Positions 149-7,568 of a stretch of DNA of 7,568 nt are shown piece after piece. The DNA is from an uncultured Desulfobacterales bacterium (GTDB lineage: Bacteria > Desulfobacterota > Desulfobacteria > Desulfobacterales > G020354645). The translations under genes and the position numbers were made by a program. Positions within the stretch are counted from its first letter, which is position 1; every line of letters starts with the position of its first letter. The stretch is taken from positions 1 to 7,568 of the forward strand of contig CAMYNZ010000179.1 in NCBI GenBank assembly GCA_947259865.1, given 5' to 3'. The notes beneath the pieces are model-generated. The model saw only the letters and a list, made by a program, of their open reading frames with translations, was not told the DNA's origin and ran no database searches.

Positions 149-592
149 ATGAAAGCCCGTCTGTTACTTTTAGATGACGAAGAGCAGTTTGTTGAGTCGC
201 TATCTGAAAGATTGTCGATGCGCGACTATGACGTAAAGACTTCCCTGACTGGAGAGGATGCCATTGCTAAAATAAAAAACTACAATTTTGATGTGGTTAT
301 CCTTGACGTTCGTTTACCAGGAATTGAAGGAACCGAAGTTCTGCGCCAAATTAAGAGCGTGAAACCATTAACTGAAGTCATTATGCTGACCGGGCATGGA
401 ACAGTGGAAAAGGCCATCGAAGGAATGAAGCTTGGCGCCTTTGATTTTCTGATGAAGCCGTGTGAGACTGAAGATTTGACCGCCAAGATCGACAAAGCGC
501 ATGACCGCAAGGCCGAACAGGAAGATCGCATCCGGACAGCCAAAATTAGTAATTTTACCTCTTCACCGAGGTCTGTTTTGAAGGATGTTTAA
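149..592 (+). CDS. Single-domain response regulator (CheY-like receiver), first of three
   Basis: A 147-residue protein that is almost entirely a receiver domain and probably accepts phosphate from a histidine kinase. The acidic pair is D9-D10, the phosphoacceptor is D53 (in ILDVRLPG), the switch threonine is T81 (in MLTGHG), and the invariant lysine is K103 followed by P104. The aromatic switch position is F100. After about residue 122 there is only a short polar tail and no output domain. It must therefore act through partner proteins or as a phosphate shuttle. The ATG at 149 is preferred because it follows AAGGAAAG at 138-145; an in-frame TTG at 119 would add ten residues outside the receiver fold. 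No kinase gene is visible nearby. The next regulator starts 14 bases after the stop, so the two are probably co-transcribed. Confidence 0.93.
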   Translation: MKARLLLLDDEEQFVESLSERLSMRDYDVKTSLTGEDAIAKIKNYNFDVVILDVRLPGIEGTEVLRQIKSVKPLTEVIMLTGHGTVEKAIEGMKLGAFDFLMKPCETEDLTAKIDKAHDRKAEQEDRIRTAKISNFTSSPRSVLKDV

Positions 593-606
593 TTTGGAGT
601 AATTTA

Positions 607-1020
607 ATGTCCGCAAAGGTTTTAATCGTTGACGATGAAAAGGATTTTCTGGATATCATGGCTGATCGTATGAGGGCCCGGGGAATGGATGTATCTACCG
701 CCACTTCGGCCGAAGATGCCCTCGAAATGGTACTAACAGAATCCTATGATGTCGTTATCATGGATTTTATGATGCCGGAAATGGACGGTTTTAAGGCCTT
801 AAAACTGTTTAAGGAATCTCGACCCGAGGTCTCAATCATCCTTTTAACGGGCAACGTACCGGAGGAAAAGTGCATCGAGGCCATCAAGCTCGGGGCTATG
901 GATGTGATCGAAAAACCAGCCGATTTGAATCTCCTCACCCAAAAAATAGAAGAAGCTAAAGCCCTAAAAATAAAAAAGCCGAGAAGAAAAGATCGCCAAG
1001 GCGAGAAAGACCCATCTTAA
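607..1020 (+). CDS. Single-domain response regulator with basic tail, second of three
   Basis: A 137-residue stand-alone receiver. It has D9-D10, phosphoacceptor D53 (IMDFMMPEMDG), T81 (LLTGN) and K103-P104, so it should be phosphorylatable. The position three residues before K103, normally Tyr or Phe and part of the activation switch, is Val100. N83 replaces the His found after the threonine in its two neighbours. Residues 118-134 form a lysine/arginine-rich tail (KIKKPRRKDR in the middle) absent from the other two. The start is supported by GGAG at 596-599, seven bases before ATG. No effector domain is present. A 46-bp near-copy of codons 111-126 lies at 6240-6285. Receiver identity is certain; the partner and output are unknown. 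Confidence 0.93.
   Translation: MSAKVLIVDDEKDFLDIMADRMRARGMDVSTATSAEDALEMVLTESYDVVIMDFMMPEMDGFKALKLFKESRPEVSIILLTGNVPEEKCIEAIKLGAMDVIEKPADLNLLTQKIEEAKALKIKKPRRKDRQGEKDPS
937..982 (+). repeat. Source copy of a 46-bp dispersed repeat inside the second regulator
   Basis: This segment, covering codons 111-125 of the second regulator and the first base of codon 126, matches 6240-6285 at 44 of 46 bases. It includes an exact run of 23 bases from 937. The differences are AAA to AAG (silent) and CCG to TCG (Pro to Ser). Confidence 0.85.
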
Positions 1021-1060: not shown

Positions 1061-1070
1061 AGGAGGTGAT
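1061..1070 (+). promoter_or_regulatory. Full-length Shine-Dalgarno that argues for a TTG start
   Basis: AGGAGGTGAT is a ten-base complement to the 3' end of 16S rRNA. Its last bases overlap the ATG at 1069, leaving only two bases after AGGAGG, which is too close for efficient initiation there. The in-frame TTG at 1075 lies eight bases after AGGAGG, the ideal distance. The site therefore favours TTG 1075 over ATG 1069 or GTG 1066. Confidence 0.7.
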
Positions 1071-1074
1071 GCGT

Positions 1075-1497
1075 TTGGAACCCTTCAGAGTTTTGCTTGT
1101 AGACGACGAGGTTGAACTTATAGATACATTACTGGAACGCATGAAGATGCGCCGGGTGGATGTCGAGTGTGTCAACAGCGGACCGGATGGCCTCGCGCTG
1201 TTGGATATTAAGAAGTTCGATGTGGTGGTACTGGATGTGAAGATGCCGAAAATGGACGGGATTGAGATGCTGAGAGAAATCAAAAAACGATATCCGATAA
1301 TTGAAGTAATTATGCTGACCGGTCATGCCGACGTTGAAGTCGCCATTCAGGGCATGGAACTCGGTGCGTTTGATTACCTCTTGAAACCGATTAAGATCGA
1401 TCAACTGCTGTACAAGATACAAGACGCATACAAAAAGAAATCCCTTACCGATCAACAGATCGTTCAGAAGAAGGAGACGTTTGGTAGGGGTGAATGA
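1075..1497 (+). CDS. Single-domain response regulator, third of three
   Basis: Another receiver-only protein, 140 residues from the TTG start. It shows D10-D11, phosphoacceptor D54 (VLDVKMPKMDG), T82 (MLTGHA), Y101 at the aromatic switch position and K104-P105. A lysine-rich helix and a short polar tail follow. It resembles the first regulator more than the second: both share the MLTGH segment, the GAFD segment and nearly identical DNA around the threonine motif, which suggests duplication. TTG at 1075 is chosen because AGGAGG at 1061-1066 is eight bases upstream; ATG at 1069 would add only two residues. A 54-base gap separates it from the previous gene and 65 bases from the transporter. It has no output domain, so it probably acts by binding a partner, possibly a product of the downstream genes. 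Confidence 0.92.
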   Translation: MEPFRVLLVDDEVELIDTLLERMKMRRVDVECVNSGPDGLALLDIKKFDVVVLDVKMPKMDGIEMLREIKKRYPIIEVIMLTGHADVEVAIQGMELGAFDYLLKPIKIDQLLYKIQDAYKKKSLTDQQIVQKKETFGRGE

Positions 1498-1562: not shown

Positions 1563-2861
1563 ATGAATTTTTTCAAGTGTTGGGGCCGATTTATGGTAAT
1601 GGGGACAAGGGTATTTGCCCAATGGGAGATCAATAATTCAACCACAATACTACACGATCGAAAACGCATCGTCCTTCTCTGCTTTCTAATCCTGCCTATC
1701 CTGTTCGGTGGCATTGTATTTGCCGATCAAATCAGCGATACCATGCCGCATTTTCTCGGGGGTAAGAAGGCATACAGCCCGGCCTTTTACAGCACGGGGA
1801 TATTTGTCGTCTCCATCCTGATCGGGATGGGGGCTGGTTTGATCACCGGCTGCATCGGTGCCGGCGGTGGGTTTATCATCGCTCCGGCATTAATGAGTGC
1901 CGGCATAAAGGGGATATTGGCCGTGGGGACCGACCTCTTTCACATTTTTGCCAAGGCCATCATGGGCAGCGTCATTCACAGAAAACTGGGCAATGTATCG
2001 GTACCGCTCGCCACTGTTTTTTTGCTTGGCGCCATCATTGGGGCGACGCTGGGGGGCGTCATCAATCGCGTGTTATACGAGATCAATCCTGTTCTCAGCG
2101 ATGCCTTCATTACCACCGTTTATGCCCTTATGCTCGGGTTTTTGGGCACCTACGCCTTGACCGATTTTCTAAGGGCCCGCAAGGCCAGCGATACGGATGA
2201 AGGCCCCGGCGAGGTTCACGGCGGCAAAGACGAAGGGGCCGTAATGGGTGCCCTTCCTATGAAAATTCAGGCTGTTCGGCTGCCGCCGATGGTCAAATTC
2301 GATTTCGCCCTGGCGCCGGGGGGACGCAGCATTTCATGGCTGTTTCTGGTGCTCAGCGGCGCACTGGTAGGGCTGGCCGCGGGTATCATGGGGGTCGGTG
2401 GCGGGTTCCTGACGTTCCCTATATTTGTCTACATGCTGGGGGTCTCCTCGATGACGACGGTGGGCACAGACATTTTTCAGATTGTTTTCACCGCCGGTTA
2501 CGCTTCGATCAGCCAATATGCTGTTTATGGCTTTATTTTTTACACATTAGCCATGGGAATGTTGCTGGGCTCGCTGCTGGGTATCCAGATAGGGGCGATG
2601 GTAACCAGGGTGGTTAAGGGCATCACCATACGGGGCTTTTATGCGATGGCCGTGCTGGCAGGATTCTTCAACCGAATTTTTGCACTGCCTTCAAAATTGG
2701 GCGAAATGGGGGTTATCCCGATCTCGAAACAAATGAGCAGCGTTTTAGATACCATTGGCGTGTGGGTGTTTTTCATTGTCATCGGCGCATTTGGCGTATG
2801 GGTTGTCGGCACTTTTTTTTCGAATCTCAGTGTCCTGAAGGGAAAGCAGGCAAGCTCATGA
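1563..2861 (+). CDS. TSUP-family (TauE/SafE-like) membrane transporter
   Basis: A 432-residue polytopic inner-membrane protein of the TauE/SafE (TSUP) family, whose known members move sulfite, sulfonates, thiosulfate or small organic anions. The family's internal duplication is clear: GCIGAGGGF at 96-104 then VGTDLFHIF at 121-129, repeated as GIMGVGGGF at 274-282 then VGTDIFQIV at 300-308. A hydrophobic segment at 35-53 ending VFA-DQ may be a signal anchor. Further membrane segments lie at about 78-106, 147-166, 180-200, 257-290, 320-345, 358-374 and 398-420. A charged loop of about 55 residues (203-256) joins the halves. It is longer than typical 250-270 residue members because of the N-terminal extension, the loop and an extra C-terminal helix. 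GAGGG at 1549-1553 supports the start. Its substrate cannot be read from sequence; a sulfur oxyanion is a guess from the family and likely host. Confidence 0.88.
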   Translation: MNFFKCWGRFMVMGTRVFAQWEINNSTTILHDRKRIVLLCFLILPILFGGIVFADQISDTMPHFLGGKKAYSPAFYSTGIFVVSILIGMGAGLITGCIGAGGGFIIAPALMSAGIKGILAVGTDLFHIFAKAIMGSVIHRKLGNVSVPLATVFLLGAIIGATLGGVINRVLYEINPVLSDAFITTVYALMLGFLGTYALTDFLRARKASDTDEGPGEVHGGKDEGAVMGALPMKIQAVRLPPMVKFDFALAPGGRSISWLFLVLSGALVGLAAGIMGVGGGFLTFPIFVYMLGVSSMTTVGTDIFQIVFTAGYASISQYAVYGFIFYTLAMGMLLGSLLGIQIGAMVTRVVKGITIRGFYAMAVLAGFFNRIFALPSKLGEMGVIPISKQMSSVLDTIGVWVFFIVIGAFGVWVVGTFFSNLSVLKGKQASS

Positions 2862-3538
2862 TTGCTCACCCTAAGAAATTCTATGGCGGTCTTGGCATGA
2901 TGGCGGGGTTTATCGTCGTGCTGATTCTCATTTTTTCGCCCATTCTTAAGGGTCAGAACTGCCTCGAGTACCTGGATTCGATGTACAACTCCATATCGAA
3001 GGGTTCTGCAAATTACATCCCCGATCTGAGGAAAGAATCCAACCGGCTATCCGACGTTTCGATAGATGTCACCTTGAAAATGGCGAATGCAGGCCAGGCC
3101 AGGCAAATCGCTCTTCTATTGAAAAAAAGCGGTGCAACAGCGAGCGTTTCAGACTCCAAAATCACAGTTAGCGGGAGCCTGGGAAAGATTTTCGAAAACT
3201 GTCTCGACGATGCCGAACACATGTATTTAAATGAAGGGAAAGCGGTCACTGACAAGTACGGCTATCATGAAAAGAGGGTTCTTTTCAACTGGTGGAATGC
3301 CTTCAAGGCATTGGACAATGAGCTTAAGAACCAAAAACGATTCAAGGAGGCCAAGATCGTTGCGCTGGTCAAAAAAAAGGCCGTGGAAACCGCATACAAT
3401 TACTACAACATTGAGCCACAGAAGATTTCGAACCGGTACGGCATCATCCTGCTGTCTCTTGTATTTTACGTCGTTTATACCATCTGGTATGGTTTCTCCA
3501 TCATGTTTATGTTTGAAGGCTGGGGGATGAAACTATAA
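2858..3538 (+). CDS. Small membrane-anchored protein of unknown function, coupled to the transporter
   Basis: I do not recognise a family. The 226-residue protein has a hydrophobic helix at about 12-30, a soluble central region (31-194) and a second helix at about 195-218 ending in a short tail. With lysines at 6-7 before the first helix, the central region is expected on the periplasmic side. It is mostly charged and helical (145-180 is Lys-rich), with a short alternating stretch near 92-106 (GATASVSDSKITVSG). It contains just two cysteines, C35 and C115, which could form a disulfide. The ATG overlaps the transporter stop as ATGA (2858-2861), with GCAGG at 2846-2850 as ribosome site, so translation is probably coupled. 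This tight link suggests an accessory subunit or a sensor for the transporter. An ORF reading in from 2762 is rejected because it lies inside the transporter gene. Confidence 0.8.
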   Translation: MIAHPKKFYGGLGMMAGFIVVLILIFSPILKGQNCLEYLDSMYNSISKGSANYIPDLRKESNRLSDVSIDVTLKMANAGQARQIALLLKKSGATASVSDSKITVSGSLGKIFENCLDDAEHMYLNEGKAVTDKYGYHEKRVLFNWWNAFKALDNELKNQKRFKEAKIVALVKKKAVETAYNYYNIEPQKISNRYGIILLSLVFYVVYTIWYGFSIMFMFEGWGMKL

Positions 3539-3557: not shown

Positions 3558-6164
3558 ATGGGAATTATCCGAAACATCATGAAGAAGGTTTTTGTAAAAA
3601 AGCATGCGCCCCGACCTTCCGACCCCGACGCACTCCGTTTTGATTTTAAGGAGAGGTACCACAGCTTCAAGCTGCTGCTCAACGCCAACAACAGGGCGCT
3701 TGAAATTATGGCCGAGCTCGAACAGGCACTGAAGGGGGAACATCCCTTTGGTATGACATTTGTCCGCAGCCGCTGTACCGCGATCGCAGTCAATGTGTTC
3801 AGAATGATTGAAAACATAGACCTTCTCGCCCCTGAAAAGTACCGGGAACTGAACACGATATTCAAAGGAATCAAGGAAGATATCGATCAGTTGCTGACCC
3901 ATGAAAAGCCAATGACGGACGAGCGATTGGTAGTCCCCATGAGCACCATAGACAAGAACATGACCGATCTTGTGGGCAGCAAAATGGCCAATCTCGGAGA
4001 ACTGAAAAATAATCTAAAACTGAACGTGCCCGACGGTTTTGCAATAACCTCCTCCGCCTTTCAGCGGTTTATCGAACACAATGATTTGAGGCCTGAAATC
4101 AATCGGCGCTTCCAGTCCGCAAATCTTGACGACATGGAATCGCTTTTCACACTCAGCGCTGAAATTCAGTACCTGATATCCACATCGAAGATCCCCAAAA
4201 GCCTCGAAGATGCGATCATGAGTGCCTGGTGGCAGACTGAGGGGAATGCAGGTTTTGAAATAACCGCGGCCCTGAGAAGCAGCGCCATGGGCGAAGGCGA
4301 GGCCGGCAGCTCGTTTGCCGGTCTGCACCTGTCCGAATTGAACATCAGTGCAGAGTTTGTTCTGGACGCCTACAAGGAGATCATTGCCAGCAAATACAGC
4401 CTCCCGGCCATTACCTACCGCTTGAAAAAGGGCTTCAAGGATTCAGATATCATCATGTGTGTCGGGTGTTTGGTGATGATCGATGCTGTTGCCGGTGGCG
4501 TTATGTATTCTCGAAATCCGAATAACGTTCATGATGATTCAATCTTCATCAATTCGGCCTGGGGTTTACCCAAGGCCGTGGTCGACGGGACGGTGGATTG
4601 CGACCTTTTTGTGGTCTCAAGAAATATTCCCCCTAAAATAGTCTATGCAGATGTGAGAACCAAGGATAGAAAATTCGTCTGCTACCCGCTGGAGGGTGTG
4701 TGCCGCCTCGAATTAAGCGGGGATGCCAGAGTGCAGCCATCGATTACCGACGAGCAGATACTGGAATTGGCTGAACTTGCCATCAAGATTGAGGAATGCT
4801 ACGCCATCTCACAGGATATCGAATGGGCTTTAGATCACGACGGCAACATAAACATCCTGCAGTGCCGGCCCCTCCGGCAGAGAGAATCGGAAAGGCTACG
4901 TATTCCCGATGTGCTTAAGGTTGAAGCGCAGAAGGCGGCTATCGTCAAGGAAGGGATTACAGCCAGTCCGGGTACTGCACACGGGAATGTTTTCGTGATT
5001 AAAAGAGATGCAGATATTCTTTCTTTTCCTCAAGGCGCTGTTCTCGTGACCTATCAGGCATTACCCAGGTGGGCCTCGCTTCTTAACCGCGCCTCGGCCG
5101 TCATCACCGAGCAGGGAAGTGTTGCCGGCCACCTTGCAAACGTGGCCAGGGAGTTTGGTATTCCCGCGCTGTTTGGCGTTTCCGGAGCTACAGAAAAGCT
5201 GAGCACTGGAGATCTTATAACGATAGATGCAAGCGGCGGGATCATTTACAAGGGACTGATCGAATCATTGTCATCGAAACCTGCTCCAAAAGCGAACATT
5301 ATGGAAGGCAGCCCTGTATATGAATCGTTGAAACAGGTGGGTGATTTTATTCTTCCGTTAACCCTCTTAGATCCGGATGCCCCTGATTTCAAACCGAGCC
5401 GCGCCAGGACTCTTCATGATATCACCCGCTTTATTCATGAAAAGGCGGTCAAAGAGATGTTCAACTTCGCCGCAGAAAATCATTTTTCCGTATGGTCCAG
5501 CAAACAGCTTTTCTACAAGGTTCCCATGCATTGGTGGTTCTTGAACCTGGACGACGGCTTCACCGGCGAAGTCAAGGGAAAGTACGTATACATCGAAAAC
5601 ATCGCCTCGGCCCCGATGAAGGCCTACTGGGAGGGATTCACGGCAATCTCCTGGGATGGCCCACCTCCTTTGGACGGCAAAGGACTCATGTCGGTGATCT
5701 TTCAGTCCACGGCCAACACCTCCCTGGTGCTTGGCCGTCGATCCAGCTTCGCAGACCGTAACTACTTCATGATCTCACGTGACTACTGCAATATGAATTC
5801 CCGCTTCGGCTACCACTTTATGACCATGGAAGCGCTGGTGAGTGAACGAACCTTTGAAAATTACATCATCTTCCAATTCAAAGGCGGTGCCGCCGATATT
5901 CAACGTCGATCCAAAAGGGTTCGCTTTATAGGTGAAGTTCTGGAAACCAGTGGATATTCCGTTACAGTCATGGAAGATACCCTGAAGGCCCGGATCGAGG
6001 CACGCGAAATGGACTACATGCTGAGGCGCATTAAAATGCTGGGCTACCTCACTTTGCACACACGTCAACTGGACATGATCATGTCCAATCCGGCTAAAGT
6101 TAAGTATTACCGAACCAAAATCGGAAAAGATCTCGAGACCCTTCTGCATGGATCCCACGACTGA
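3558..6164 (+). CDS. PEP-synthase-like protein: ATP-grasp and phosphohistidine domains, no PEP barrel
   Basis: An 868-residue soluble protein. Residues 1-130 form a helical N-terminal domain. Residues 135-440 are a PPDK/PEP-synthase nucleotide-binding domain: VGSKMANLGEL with K142, VPDGFAITSSAF, ALRSSAMGEGEAG with R240, and QDIEWALDHDG through LQCRPLR with E422, Q435 and R437. Residues 495-590 are the swivelling domain with H525 in SVAGHLANVAREFGIPAL. The His aligns with the phosphohistidine of this enzyme class, though the usual GG-x-T-x-H context is altered. The TIM barrel that binds PEP/pyruvate is absent. Instead, residues 600-868 hold a domain I cannot name, with ARTLHDITRF (617-626) and a conserved-looking NYFMISRDY region. 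It is therefore not a canonical PEP synthase despite what automatic annotation would say. It starts 19 bases after the previous gene with a weak ribosome site. The acceptor of the phosphate is unknown. Confidence 0.85.
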   Translation: MGIIRNIMKKVFVKKHAPRPSDPDALRFDFKERYHSFKLLLNANNRALEIMAELEQALKGEHPFGMTFVRSRCTAIAVNVFRMIENIDLLAPEKYRELNTIFKGIKEDIDQLLTHEKPMTDERLVVPMSTIDKNMTDLVGSKMANLGELKNNLKLNVPDGFAITSSAFQRFIEHNDLRPEINRRFQSANLDDMESLFTLSAEIQYLISTSKIPKSLEDAIMSAWWQTEGNAGFEITAALRSSAMGEGEAGSSFAGLHLSELNISAEFVLDAYKEIIASKYSLPAITYRLKKGFKDSDIIMCVGCLVMIDAVAGGVMYSRNPNNVHDDSIFINSAWGLPKAVVDGTVDCDLFVVSRNIPPKIVYADVRTKDRKFVCYPLEGVCRLELSGDARVQPSITDEQILELAELAIKIEECYAISQDIEWALDHDGNINILQCRPLRQRESERLRIPDVLKVEAQKAAIVKEGITASPGTAHGNVFVIKRDADILSFPQGAVLVTYQALPRWASLLNRASAVITEQGSVAGHLANVAREFGIPALFGVSGATEKLSTGDLITIDASGGIIYKGLIESLSSKPAPKANIMEGSPVYESLKQVGDFILPLTLLDPDAPDFKPSRARTLHDITRFIHEKAVKEMFNFAAENHFSVWSSKQLFYKVPMHWWFLNLDDGFTGEVKGKYVYIENIASAPMKAYWEGFTAISWDGPPPLDGKGLMSVIFQSTANTSLVLGRRSSFADRNYFMISRDYCNMNSRFGYHFMTMEALVSERTFENYIIFQFKGGAADIQRRSKRVRFIGEVLETSGYSVTVMEDTLKARIEAREMDYMLRRIKMLGYLTLHTRQLDMIMSNPAKVKYYRTKIGKDLETLLHGSHD

Positions 6165-6316: not shown

Positions 6317-7568
6317 CTATTTGACAGCCGTGCTTTGAAGAACCTGGGTTGCCTGCTCGAGAATTCCCTCCGGAAAACCAACGATGGGATAGATCACCAG
6401 AAACCCGATGATCCAGAGCAGCAGCATGGACAGAATAAAAAATCCAAAACCGTATTTCACAAAATCAACGGCTTCAAGGGCGCGCTTATTGGTATCCGGA
6501 TAAACCCCCAGTGCAAATGTCAGCGCATTGGCGGGAGACCCCACGATCAAGAAATGGGCATATGAAGATGCCAATGCCACCGCCATGCCGATAGCCCAAG
6601 GCTCGCCGGCAACCTGGGTCATAATCCCCATGGGAACAACAATGGGTCCGATAAGGGCGACGGTAGCGGCATCAGACATAAAATTGGTAACCAAACCGGA
6701 GAAAGCGGACATTCCGAGCCACAACCCATAGCCCTGATCCATGCCAACCTGGGACAGTACGTTCAGAAAGGTGGTCGCCAGCCACAGGGCACCACCGCTT
6801 TCCTTAAGCAACGCGCCCAGGGTCAGAGCCCCACAATACATAAACCAAGCATTAAAGGATATGCGCCTAATTATCTGTTCAAATTGTACGGTCTTGAACA
6901 AAACCGGTATGACCAGGGCCAGAAGCGCCGGTCCGCCCAATCCCGTGGCTTCGCCACCGAATATCCACAAGGCCACAATCAGGAAAAGCGTGCCGGCCGT
7001 GACATACTCGGGATATTTCATTTTACCCATGCGGCGCGTCTCTTCCTTGATATGTTGCAACCCGGGGGTAAGGTCTCTGGTTTTTATCTTCTTACTGAAG
7101 AAAGTCGCCATATAGAACAACAACAGAGTGCTGCCGAGCGGCACCAGGGGCCAGCCGTATTGCATCCAGCCGGAATAGGTTATTGGTATGCCGTATTCAG
7201 TAAAAAAACCCATCATGATCACATTGCGCCCGCCGGCCGAAGGTGTTCCTGGACCTCCCATATTGAGCGCGAAGCAAAGGGAAAAAAGCAGATATTTGGC
7301 AAGCGCCGGATCGTGAACCACCTCCCCTTCCTCCGGGCTGGTGGCCTTCACCGATCCGTAATAGACAGCCATCATCACCGGCACCATAAACGAACACATG
7401 GCTGGGGCCGACATAACTGAACCCACAACAGACATGCTGACGCACAGCACGATCATGGGGACCCAGAATCCTTTGGTCCATCCCAGCAGCCAGACGGCCA
7501 GGCGTTTATGAAAACCAACTTCTACCACCGTCGCTCCCAGGGCAAAAACGCCCAGCATGAACATCGGG
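6317..7568 (-). CDS. SLC13/DASS-family anion permease, 5' end outside window
   Basis: A polytopic inner-membrane transporter, incomplete at its N-terminus. The frame is open through 7565-7567 (CCG), so the ATG at 7564 is internal. The 415 residues counted from that Met show the two-fold DASS layout: GGPGTPSAGGRN (103-114) in the first half, NFMSDAATVALIGP (294 onward) and VGSPANALTFALG (342 onward, with N346) in the second half. These correspond to the hairpin-loop and SNT-type sites that bind sodium and the anion in this family. At both sites the usual Ser-Asn-Thr is altered (MSAPA near 51-55, MSDAA at 296-300), so cation dependence is uncertain. It is predicted to carry sulfate or a di- or tricarboxylate. 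It runs toward the six-gene cluster and is not part of that operon. It ends in TAG. Family members usually have 450-600 residues, so roughly 50-150 are missing. Confidence 0.85.
   Translation of the reverse strand, partial: PMFMLGVFALGATVVEVGFHKRLAVWLLGWTKGFWVPMIVLCVSMSVVGSVMSAPAMCSFMVPVMMAVYYGSVKATSPEEGEVVHDPALAKYLLFSLCFALNMGGPGTPSAGGRNVIMMGFFTEYGIPITYSGWMQYGWPLVPLGSTLLLFYMATFFSKKIKTRDLTPGLQHIKEETRRMGKMKYPEYVTAGTLFLIVALWIFGGEATGLGGPALLALVIPVLFKTVQFEQIIRRISFNAWFMYCGALTLGALLKESGGALWLATTFLNVLSQVGMDQGYGLWLGMSAFSGLVTNFMSDAATVALIGPIVVPMGIMTQVAGEPWAIGMAVALASSYAHFLIVGSPANALTFALGVYPDTNKRALEAVDFVKYGFGFFILSMLLLWIIGFLVIYPIVGFPEGILEQATQVLQSTAVK

What the first reader, a model, noticed from the sequence alone, without database searches (positions are those of the whole stretch)
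3558..6164. PEP-synthase-like protein without a PEP barrel and with an unassigned C-terminal domain
The nucleotide-binding residues (K142, R240, E422, Q435, R437) and the swivelling-domain histidine (H525) are in place, so autophosphorylation from ATP is plausible. The barrel that would hand the phosphate to pyruvate is missing. About 270 C-terminal residues form a different domain, and the motif around H525 (SVAGHLA) departs from the usual GG-x-T-x-H-A. The protein may phosphorylate another small molecule or a protein. Annotation as PEP synthase would mislead.
Basis: partly seen in the sequence, partly recalled or inferred. Interest (0 to 1): 0.72.

Follow-up and report, generated by a model that had tools for sequence, protein, structure and literature searches.

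The report
Barrel-less PEP-synthase relative beside anion transporter
A protein usually labelled PEP synthase lacks the part that makes PEP and carries a conserved uncharacterised domain instead; its family often sits beside anion-transporter and signalling genes in sulfate-reducing bacteria and their relatives, so it may be an ATP-driven switch for transport rather than a metabolic enzyme.

Summary
Confirmed: the 868-aa protein has the PPDK_N ATP-grasp and the phosphohistidine swivel domain (H525), but no PEP/pyruvate barrel; Pfam finds that barrel in a true PEP synthase of a related genome (5.7e-60), not here at E up to 1. The last 300 residues match no Pfam family and no clear solved fold, yet hold the family's most conserved residues (D621, H753: 214 of 214 sequences). 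In six paralogues K142, E422, Q435 and H525 are lost together while the C-terminal residues stay; each dead copy has an intact partner copy nearby. The family is common in its phylum (107 of 297 genomes sampled) and linked to TSUP/TauE permeases: 61 of 89 genes with full flanks have one within 6 kb, about 4% expected. Two-component genes and small membrane proteins recur; one branch has a DSP phosphatase alongside, and two of its loci have the full gene order of the Desulfovibrio "nitrate cluster", where insertions in the permease, receiver or PEP-synthase-like gene gave nitrate resistance (Korte 2014). Best reading: a dikinase turned signalling phosphotransferase that helps switch a TSUP anion transporter. 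Phosphorylation, acceptor and transported ion are inferred, not shown.

The parts
149..592 (+). Stand-alone response-regulator receiver RR1 (start codon uncertain: ORF open from TTG 119, ATG 149)
   Evidence: PF00072 1.5e-28; sequence
607..1020 (+). Stand-alone receiver RR2
   Evidence: PF00072 1.2e-28
1066..1497 (+). Stand-alone receiver RR3
   Evidence: PF00072 3.9e-28
1563..2861 (+). TSUP-family permease (TauE/SafE), 432 aa
   Evidence: PF01925 6.8e-35; 8 hydrophobic segments
2858..3538 (+). HYP: small protein with hydrophobic segments at both ends, no Pfam family; start taken as ATG 2858, overlapping the TauE stop
   Evidence: No Pfam family above its cut-off; hydropathy; TauE and HYP both upstream of the gene in 45 of 57 relatives with room
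3558..6164 (+). PEP-synthase-like protein without a PEP barrel (the finding), 868 aa
3558..3917 (+). N-terminal helical region, residues 1-120
   Evidence: Helices 2-11, 23-57, 66-90, 97-114 in the model
3966..4895 (+). ATP-grasp (PPDK_N), residues 137-446, with K142, R240, E422, Q435, R437
5025..5240 (+). Phosphohistidine swivel domain, residues 490-561; H525 codon at 5130-5132
5271..6161 (+). Unassigned C-terminal domain, residues 572-868 (near-invariant D621, H627, H753, R787, D839)
   Evidence: No Pfam family in the window member, best E 0.013 among 89 members; conservation in 214 sequences; no Foldseek match at E<=0.001

Best explanation
The protein is a barrel-less dikinase relative working as a signalling phosphotransferase in a TSUP anion-transport gene set. 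ATP binds the ATP-grasp and phosphorylates H525 on the swivel domain (AMP and Pi released, by analogy with PEP synthase, PPDK and RPH). The swivel then turns to the C-terminal domain, which takes the place of the PEP/pyruvate barrel and either passes the phosphoryl group to, or reports its state to, a partner. The partner is most likely a protein of the same cluster (TauE permease, HYP protein or a lone receiver). A histidine kinase and the receivers set when this happens, and in one branch a DSP phosphatase would reverse it. The outcome is control of uptake or export of an anion, perhaps a sulfur oxyanion such as thiosulfate or sulfite. Shown here: architecture, co-conservation, genomic linkage. 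Shown in print for Desulfovibrio genes of the same kind: a loss-of-function phenotype shared with the permease. Inferred: all chemistry, the acceptor, the direction and ion of transport.
For: All five ATP-site residues plus H525 present together in 202 of 214 sequences. Six paralogues lose K142, E422, Q435 and H525 (to R) together while keeping R240, R437 and the C-terminal residues; in all six loci a second, intact copy lies nearby. So ATP site and histidine act as one unit. Structural match to RPH, PEP synthase and PPDK over about 120-567. Window gene run RR-RR-RR-TauE-HYP-PEPS; TauE and HYP both within 6 kb upstream in 45 of 57 close relatives with more than 2.6 kb upstream, often after an HK and receivers. 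TauE within 6 kb of 61 of 89 family genes with full flanks, and of 34 of the 62 of these without the HYP label; background 182 TSUP matches in 20 genomes of about 71 Mb, i.e. about 4% by chance (sizes summed by hand). DSP phosphatase 0-277 bp from 19 of 206 family ORFs, and next to PEPS in 9 of 10 regions chosen by similarity to a Halodesulfovibrio member. L199 and L200 (2 of those 10) show TauE-(gap)-PtxB-HK-RR-PEPS-DSP, the order tabled for DVU0251-0245. Korte 2014 (abstract and sections 14, 16, 17 read): transposon mutants of DVU0246, DVU0247, DVU0250 and DVU0251 grew alike with and without 100 mM nitrate; the DVU0245 phosphatase mutant was inhibited; the authors suggest a leaky thiosulfate transporter.
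Against: No direct evidence of phosphorylation or of an acceptor. The six H525R paralogues keep the C-terminal domain, so that domain has some role that does not need the local histidine. 28 of 89 fully flanked family genes have no TauE within 6 kb by these queries; the six H525R copies have none in the DNA fetched. A phosphatase is not general: DSP near PEPS in 3 and the calcineurin-like type in 2 of 48 regions, 8 and 3 of 20 more divergent regions, and neither in L001-L080, so the window's own subfamily has no known eraser. The phosphatase genetics conflict: the G20 homologue Dde_0605 mutant is nitrate-fit (+2.08) while DVU0245 is not (-6.04); DVU0250 is discordant between pooled (-5.82) and isolated mutants. 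DVU0246 itself was not fetched; its membership rests on Desulfovibrionaceae relatives, gene order and the domain names in Korte's table.
Confidence: 0.5

Rival explanations
1. Small-molecule dikinase: like RPH or the phenol-type kinases HpeHI and PpsAB, it phosphorylates a small compound, perhaps the substrate brought in by the permease, trapping or activating it; the C-terminal domain is the substrate-binding site.
For: The characterised relatives with another acceptor domain that I saw described act on small molecules (passages of PMC4844700 and PMC12167813). Near-invariant H, D, E and R residues in the C-terminal domain look like an active site. DSP-type phosphatases can act on small molecules (general knowledge).
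Against: In the L001-L080 neighbourhoods plus the window the most recurrent other clusters are receivers (58 loci), HYP (54), HK (51) and TauE (50); the next are in 17 or fewer, among them DASS transporters (16), a regulator-like family (13) and a large unannotated protein (9), so no single metabolic gene goes with it. Pseudo-paralogues without the histidine keep the domain.
Confidence: 0.25
2. Conformational sensor or scaffold: ATP binding and H525 phosphorylation only change the shape of the protein, which binds a receiver or the permease through the C-terminal domain; no onward transfer.
For: C-terminal residues outlast loss of ATP-site residues and histidine in six paralogues, and loss of ATP-site residues alone in L101_9228 and L102_10265. 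The six dead copies each have an intact copy nearby.
Against: H525, R531 and E532 are otherwise kept (205, 211 and 211 of 214, three being gaps in each case), as expected for real phosphotransfer.
Confidence: 0.18
3. A PEP synthase with an unrecognisably diverged barrel.
For: Shares the first two domains, and databases name some relatives 'pyruvate,water dikinase'.
Against: No PEP-utilizers_C with a working control. The predicted secondary structure of the C-terminal part lacks the alternating strand-helix pattern of a TIM barrel. Well below NCBIfam cut-offs, 344 vs 598 and 328 vs 740 bits. A separate match to about residues 100-580 alone, as a true PEP synthase would give, is in 16 of 26 and 2 of 4 genomes (my count); one of these was checked and has the barrel.
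Confidence: 0.02

Closest known systems
PEP synthase (pyruvate, water dikinase; TIGR01418, NF005057)
   Same: ATP-grasp and central phosphohistidine swivel domain in the same order
   Different: No PEP/pyruvate barrel; unrelated C-terminal domain; the Thr two before the His is Ala; extra helical N-terminus of about 120 residues
Rifampin phosphotransferase RPH
   Different: RPH has its histidine domain last and a RIF-binding domain in the middle (passages); here the histidine is central and the new domain last
HpeHI, CreHI and PpsAB two-component phenol-type kinases
   Same: Dikinases with a non-pyruvate acceptor domain (passages)
   Different: Two polypeptides, RPH-like acceptor domain, aromatic catabolism
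Nitrate cluster DVU0251-0245 / Dde_0597-0605 of Desulfovibrio (Korte 2014)
   Same: TauE permease, a conserved hypothetical gene, HK, receiver and PEP-synthase-like protein; L199 and L200 have the same order and their PEPS proteins carry the same C-terminal residues
   Different: The window has three lone receivers, its own HYP protein, and no PtxB or phosphatase gene in view

Membership tests
PEP synthase (pyruvate, water dikinase) | PPDK_N ATP-grasp domain | tested here: met
   4.5e-85
PEP synthase (pyruvate, water dikinase) | Phosphohistidine mobile domain with catalytic His | tested here: met
   8e-20; H525 conserved in 205 of 214
PEP synthase (pyruvate, water dikinase) | PEP-utilizers_C barrel | tested here: not met
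   No hit at E<=1; control PEP synthase 5.7e-60; profile comparison probability 0.1%
PEP synthase (pyruvate, water dikinase) | NCBIfam curated cut-off | tested here: not met
   344.3 vs 598 and 328.2 vs 739.75 bits
PEP synthase (pyruvate, water dikinase) | GGXT(S/C)HA around the His, with regulatory Thr | tested here: not met
   GSVAGHL in the window; motif as quoted in PMC12167813 passages
Rifampin phosphotransferase | NCBIfam curated cut-off | tested here: not met
   219.7 vs 999 bits
Rifampin phosphotransferase | Histidine domain at the C-terminus, RIF-binding domain in the middle | tested here: not met
   H525 of 868, with about 300 residues after the swivel domain
Barrel-less family of the Desulfovibrio nitrate cluster | Full-length homology including the C-terminal domain | tested here: met
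   Desulfovibrionaceae members P0216, P0228, P0231, P0244 align at 30-31% identity to the window protein and share D621, H627, E628, H753, R787, D839
Barrel-less family of the Desulfovibrio nitrate cluster | Next to a TSUP permease with two-component genes | tested here: met
   Window; L199 and L200
Barrel-less family of the Desulfovibrio nitrate cluster | Loss gives nitrate resistance | not testable with these tools
   Reported for DVU0246 and Dde_0604 only
Barrel-less family of the Desulfovibrio nitrate cluster | Alignment with DVU0246 itself | not tested
   The sequence of DVU0246 was not knowingly among the records fetched

The most novel reading that the evidence does not exclude
A new kind of protein kinase: a PEP-synthase-derived, AMP-forming dikinase whose barrel was replaced by a new acceptor domain, phosphorylating a transport or receiver protein through phospho-His, with dedicated DSP- or PPP-type phosphatases as erasers in some branches and catalytically dead paralogues as regulators, switching TSUP anion transporters across the sulfate reducers.
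Probability: 0.28. Interest if true: 0.87.

Novelty: new variant of a known kind. Interest (0 to 1): 0.62.

Why it matters
A widespread, often multi-copy protein of Desulfobacterota is filed as a central-metabolism enzyme whose key domain it lacks. If it gates anion transporters, it would help explain a phenotype reported in 2014 and left open (nitrate resistance of Desulfovibrio, relevant to oil-field souring control), give the C-terminal domain a function, and supply a testable example of a dikinase used for signalling.

Tried and rejected

Literature: searches listed, between them, Korte 2014 and, in the listings, no work on the biochemistry of this protein; most listed papers were not opened. 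Carlson 2015 was not held. Passages of PMC10102598 and PMC4215793 held nothing on this cluster for the terms used; PMC5840216 passages discuss TSUP and DASS transporters generally. For PMC4844700 and PMC12167813 I saw passages, some from the abstract, only.

Limits of the counts. The regions were picked by me from listed hits by score and genome, not at random. A2 used 88 of 92 tblastn pieces plus the window (4 short pieces dropped). A3 and A1 are hand-picked subsets. One search covered 158 of the 208 loci (L001-L080, L101-L108, L139-L208) for ORFs of at least 600 aa with the C-terminal domain: 206 ORFs, plus P0001 and 7 database proteins; shorter or broken copies were left out. Alignment columns inside degenerate ATP-grasp copies are uncertain. 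ORF calling was greedy by length and sometimes chose an antisense ORF, so the TAUE and HYP counts printed (43 and 38 of 58, window included) are low; tblastn gives 46 and 45 of 57. The TSUP background uses 20 genomes that all carry the family.

Full report
What is there. The window encodes, on the + strand, three lone receivers, a TSUP permease, a small protein with two hydrophobic ends (HYP) and the 868-aa protein of the finding (PEPS below), closely spaced; a DASS/CitMHS-type transporter gene runs the other way at 6317-7567. PEPS has PPDK_N and the PEP-utilizers mobile domain and no PEP-utilizers_C. A true PEP synthase from a related genome, used as a control, gives all three domains.

Family. 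1718 proteins scored at E<=1e-3 (the list may include true PEP synthases). A search with residues 572-868 alone found 2323 proteins at E<=10; the 120 listed all carry both N-terminal domains, so among those the C-terminal domain is seen only in this architecture. Its profile is in 107 of 297 genomes drawn from the phylum of G001, with up to 8 matches per genome (at most 8 candidates per genome were scored). A separate match restricted to about residues 100-580, as expected for a true PEP synthase, is in 16 of 26 genomes and 2 of 4 (my count).

Conservation. In 214 family sequences H525 is H in 205, R in 6 and a gap in 3. K142 is kept in 202, R240 in 210, E422 in 204, Q435 in 204 and R437 in 210; 202 of 214 have all five and H525. 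In the C-terminal domain D621 and H753 are kept in 214, H627, R787 and D839 in 213, H620 in 211, R624 in 210 and E628 in 208. The six H525R copies (L147, L151, L152, L156, L157, L158) also lose K142, E422 and Q435, keep R240, R437 and the C-terminal set, and each lies across an HK and a receiver gene from a second copy that is intact at all these positions. Two further copies (L101_9228, L102_10265) have a degenerate ATP site but keep the histidine; each is the middle one of three tandem copies, the outer two intact.

Context. Of 57 relatives among L001-L080 with more than 2.6 kb upstream, 45 have both TauE and HYP within 6 kb upstream on the same strand; HK and one to three receivers often precede them (receivers roughly counted as 3, 2, 1 and 0 in 15, 10, 5 and 3 of 33 loci). 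In 48 regions around mostly more divergent copies, TauE lies within 6 kb of a PEPS gene in 34, HK and RR in 39 each, HYP in 9, DUF4881 in 15, Alph_Pro_TM in 3, DSP in 3 and a calcineurin-like phosphatase in 2; per gene, TauE 48 of 77, HK 60, RR 65. In 20 further regions from genomes with weaker matches: TauE 11, Alph_Pro_TM 10, DSP 8, calcineurin-like 3, PtxB 2, HK 13, RR 16. For the 89 ORFs with 6 kb on both sides, TauE is near 61; for the 62 of these without the HYP label, 34. Chance expectation is about 4% from 182 TSUP matches in 20 genomes of about 71 Mb (my arithmetic). HK and RR genes are abundant in such genomes, and their linkage was not tested against a background. On the tree, DSP-labelled copies lie among the Desulfovibrionaceae proteins, and HYP copies around the window (leaf order only; no support values or shuffles were examined).

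Link to genetics. The 120 listed matches of a divergent query (L191) include Desulfovibrio aminophilus, Halodesulfovibrio and Solidesulfovibrio proteins, which carry the C-terminal residues. Searching genomes with a Halodesulfovibrio protein and fetching ten regions gave DSP adjacent in 9 of 10, PtxB in 4 of 10, and in L199 and L200 the complete order TauE-gap-PtxB-HK-RR-PEPS-DSP. In L199 the gap holds a 224-aa ORF without a Pfam family. L191 has PtxB-HK-RR-PEPS-DSP, but no TauE was found in the 4 kb fetched beyond PtxB. Korte 2014 report for D. vulgaris and D. alaskensis that insertions in the permease, receiver and PEP-synthase-like genes of that cluster give nitrate resistance, and suggest a leaky thiosulfate transporter. 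If DVU0245 is the only cluster gene downstream of DVU0246, as the numbering suggests, polarity is an unlikely cause of the DVU0246 phenotype, since the DVU0245 mutant is itself not resistant (inference). The G20 phosphatase mutant behaves differently (+2.08), which weakens a simple kinase/phosphatase antagonism.

Mechanism and confidence. ATP-dependent phosphorylation of H525: about 0.85. Role in control of a TSUP transporter: about 0.6. Protein rather than small-molecule acceptor: about 0.5. The combined statement, which also allows reporting without transfer, is given 0.5. Novelty: the domain combination and role are not described in the listings of the searches named; the gene cluster and its nitrate phenotype are known.

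Noticed in passing
window 6317-7567 (-): DASS/CitMHS-type anion transporter gene, convergent with the finding. Homologues lie in the same neighbourhood of some relatives, e.g. L010, L037 and L039 in the order DASS-RR-HK-RR-RR ahead of PEPS.
   Followed up: partly
L147:4963-7650, L151:4965-7697, L152:4777-7395, L156:11021-13651, L157:4890-7637, L158:11280-14021: Family copies with the catalytic His replaced by Arg and three ATP-site residues lost together, each paired with an intact second copy across an HK-RR gene pair.
   Followed up: partly
L101:6563-14784 and L102:7261-15584: Three tandem family copies next to TauE, Alph_Pro_TM and a calcineurin-like phosphatase gene; the middle copy has a degenerate ATP site but keeps the His.
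   Followed up: partly
L103:11542-12639 and relatives: The DSP phosphatases have a second, cysteine-containing half without a Pfam name.
   Followed up: no
L188:11088-11720: Small protein between TauE and PEPS with a sub-threshold match to EMC3/TMCO1 (7.7e-4, below cut-off).
   Followed up: no
L108, L141, L142, L144, L145, L148, L154, L155, L159, L160, L173-L177: DUF4881 genes (Pfam-confirmed in L108, the rest by tblastn to it) sit next to TauE near family members, suggesting DUF4881 is a TSUP accessory protein.
   Followed up: partly
window 3558-6164, residue 247: G at a position that is D in 202 of 214 family members, next to conserved E246 of the ATP-grasp domain.
   Followed up: no
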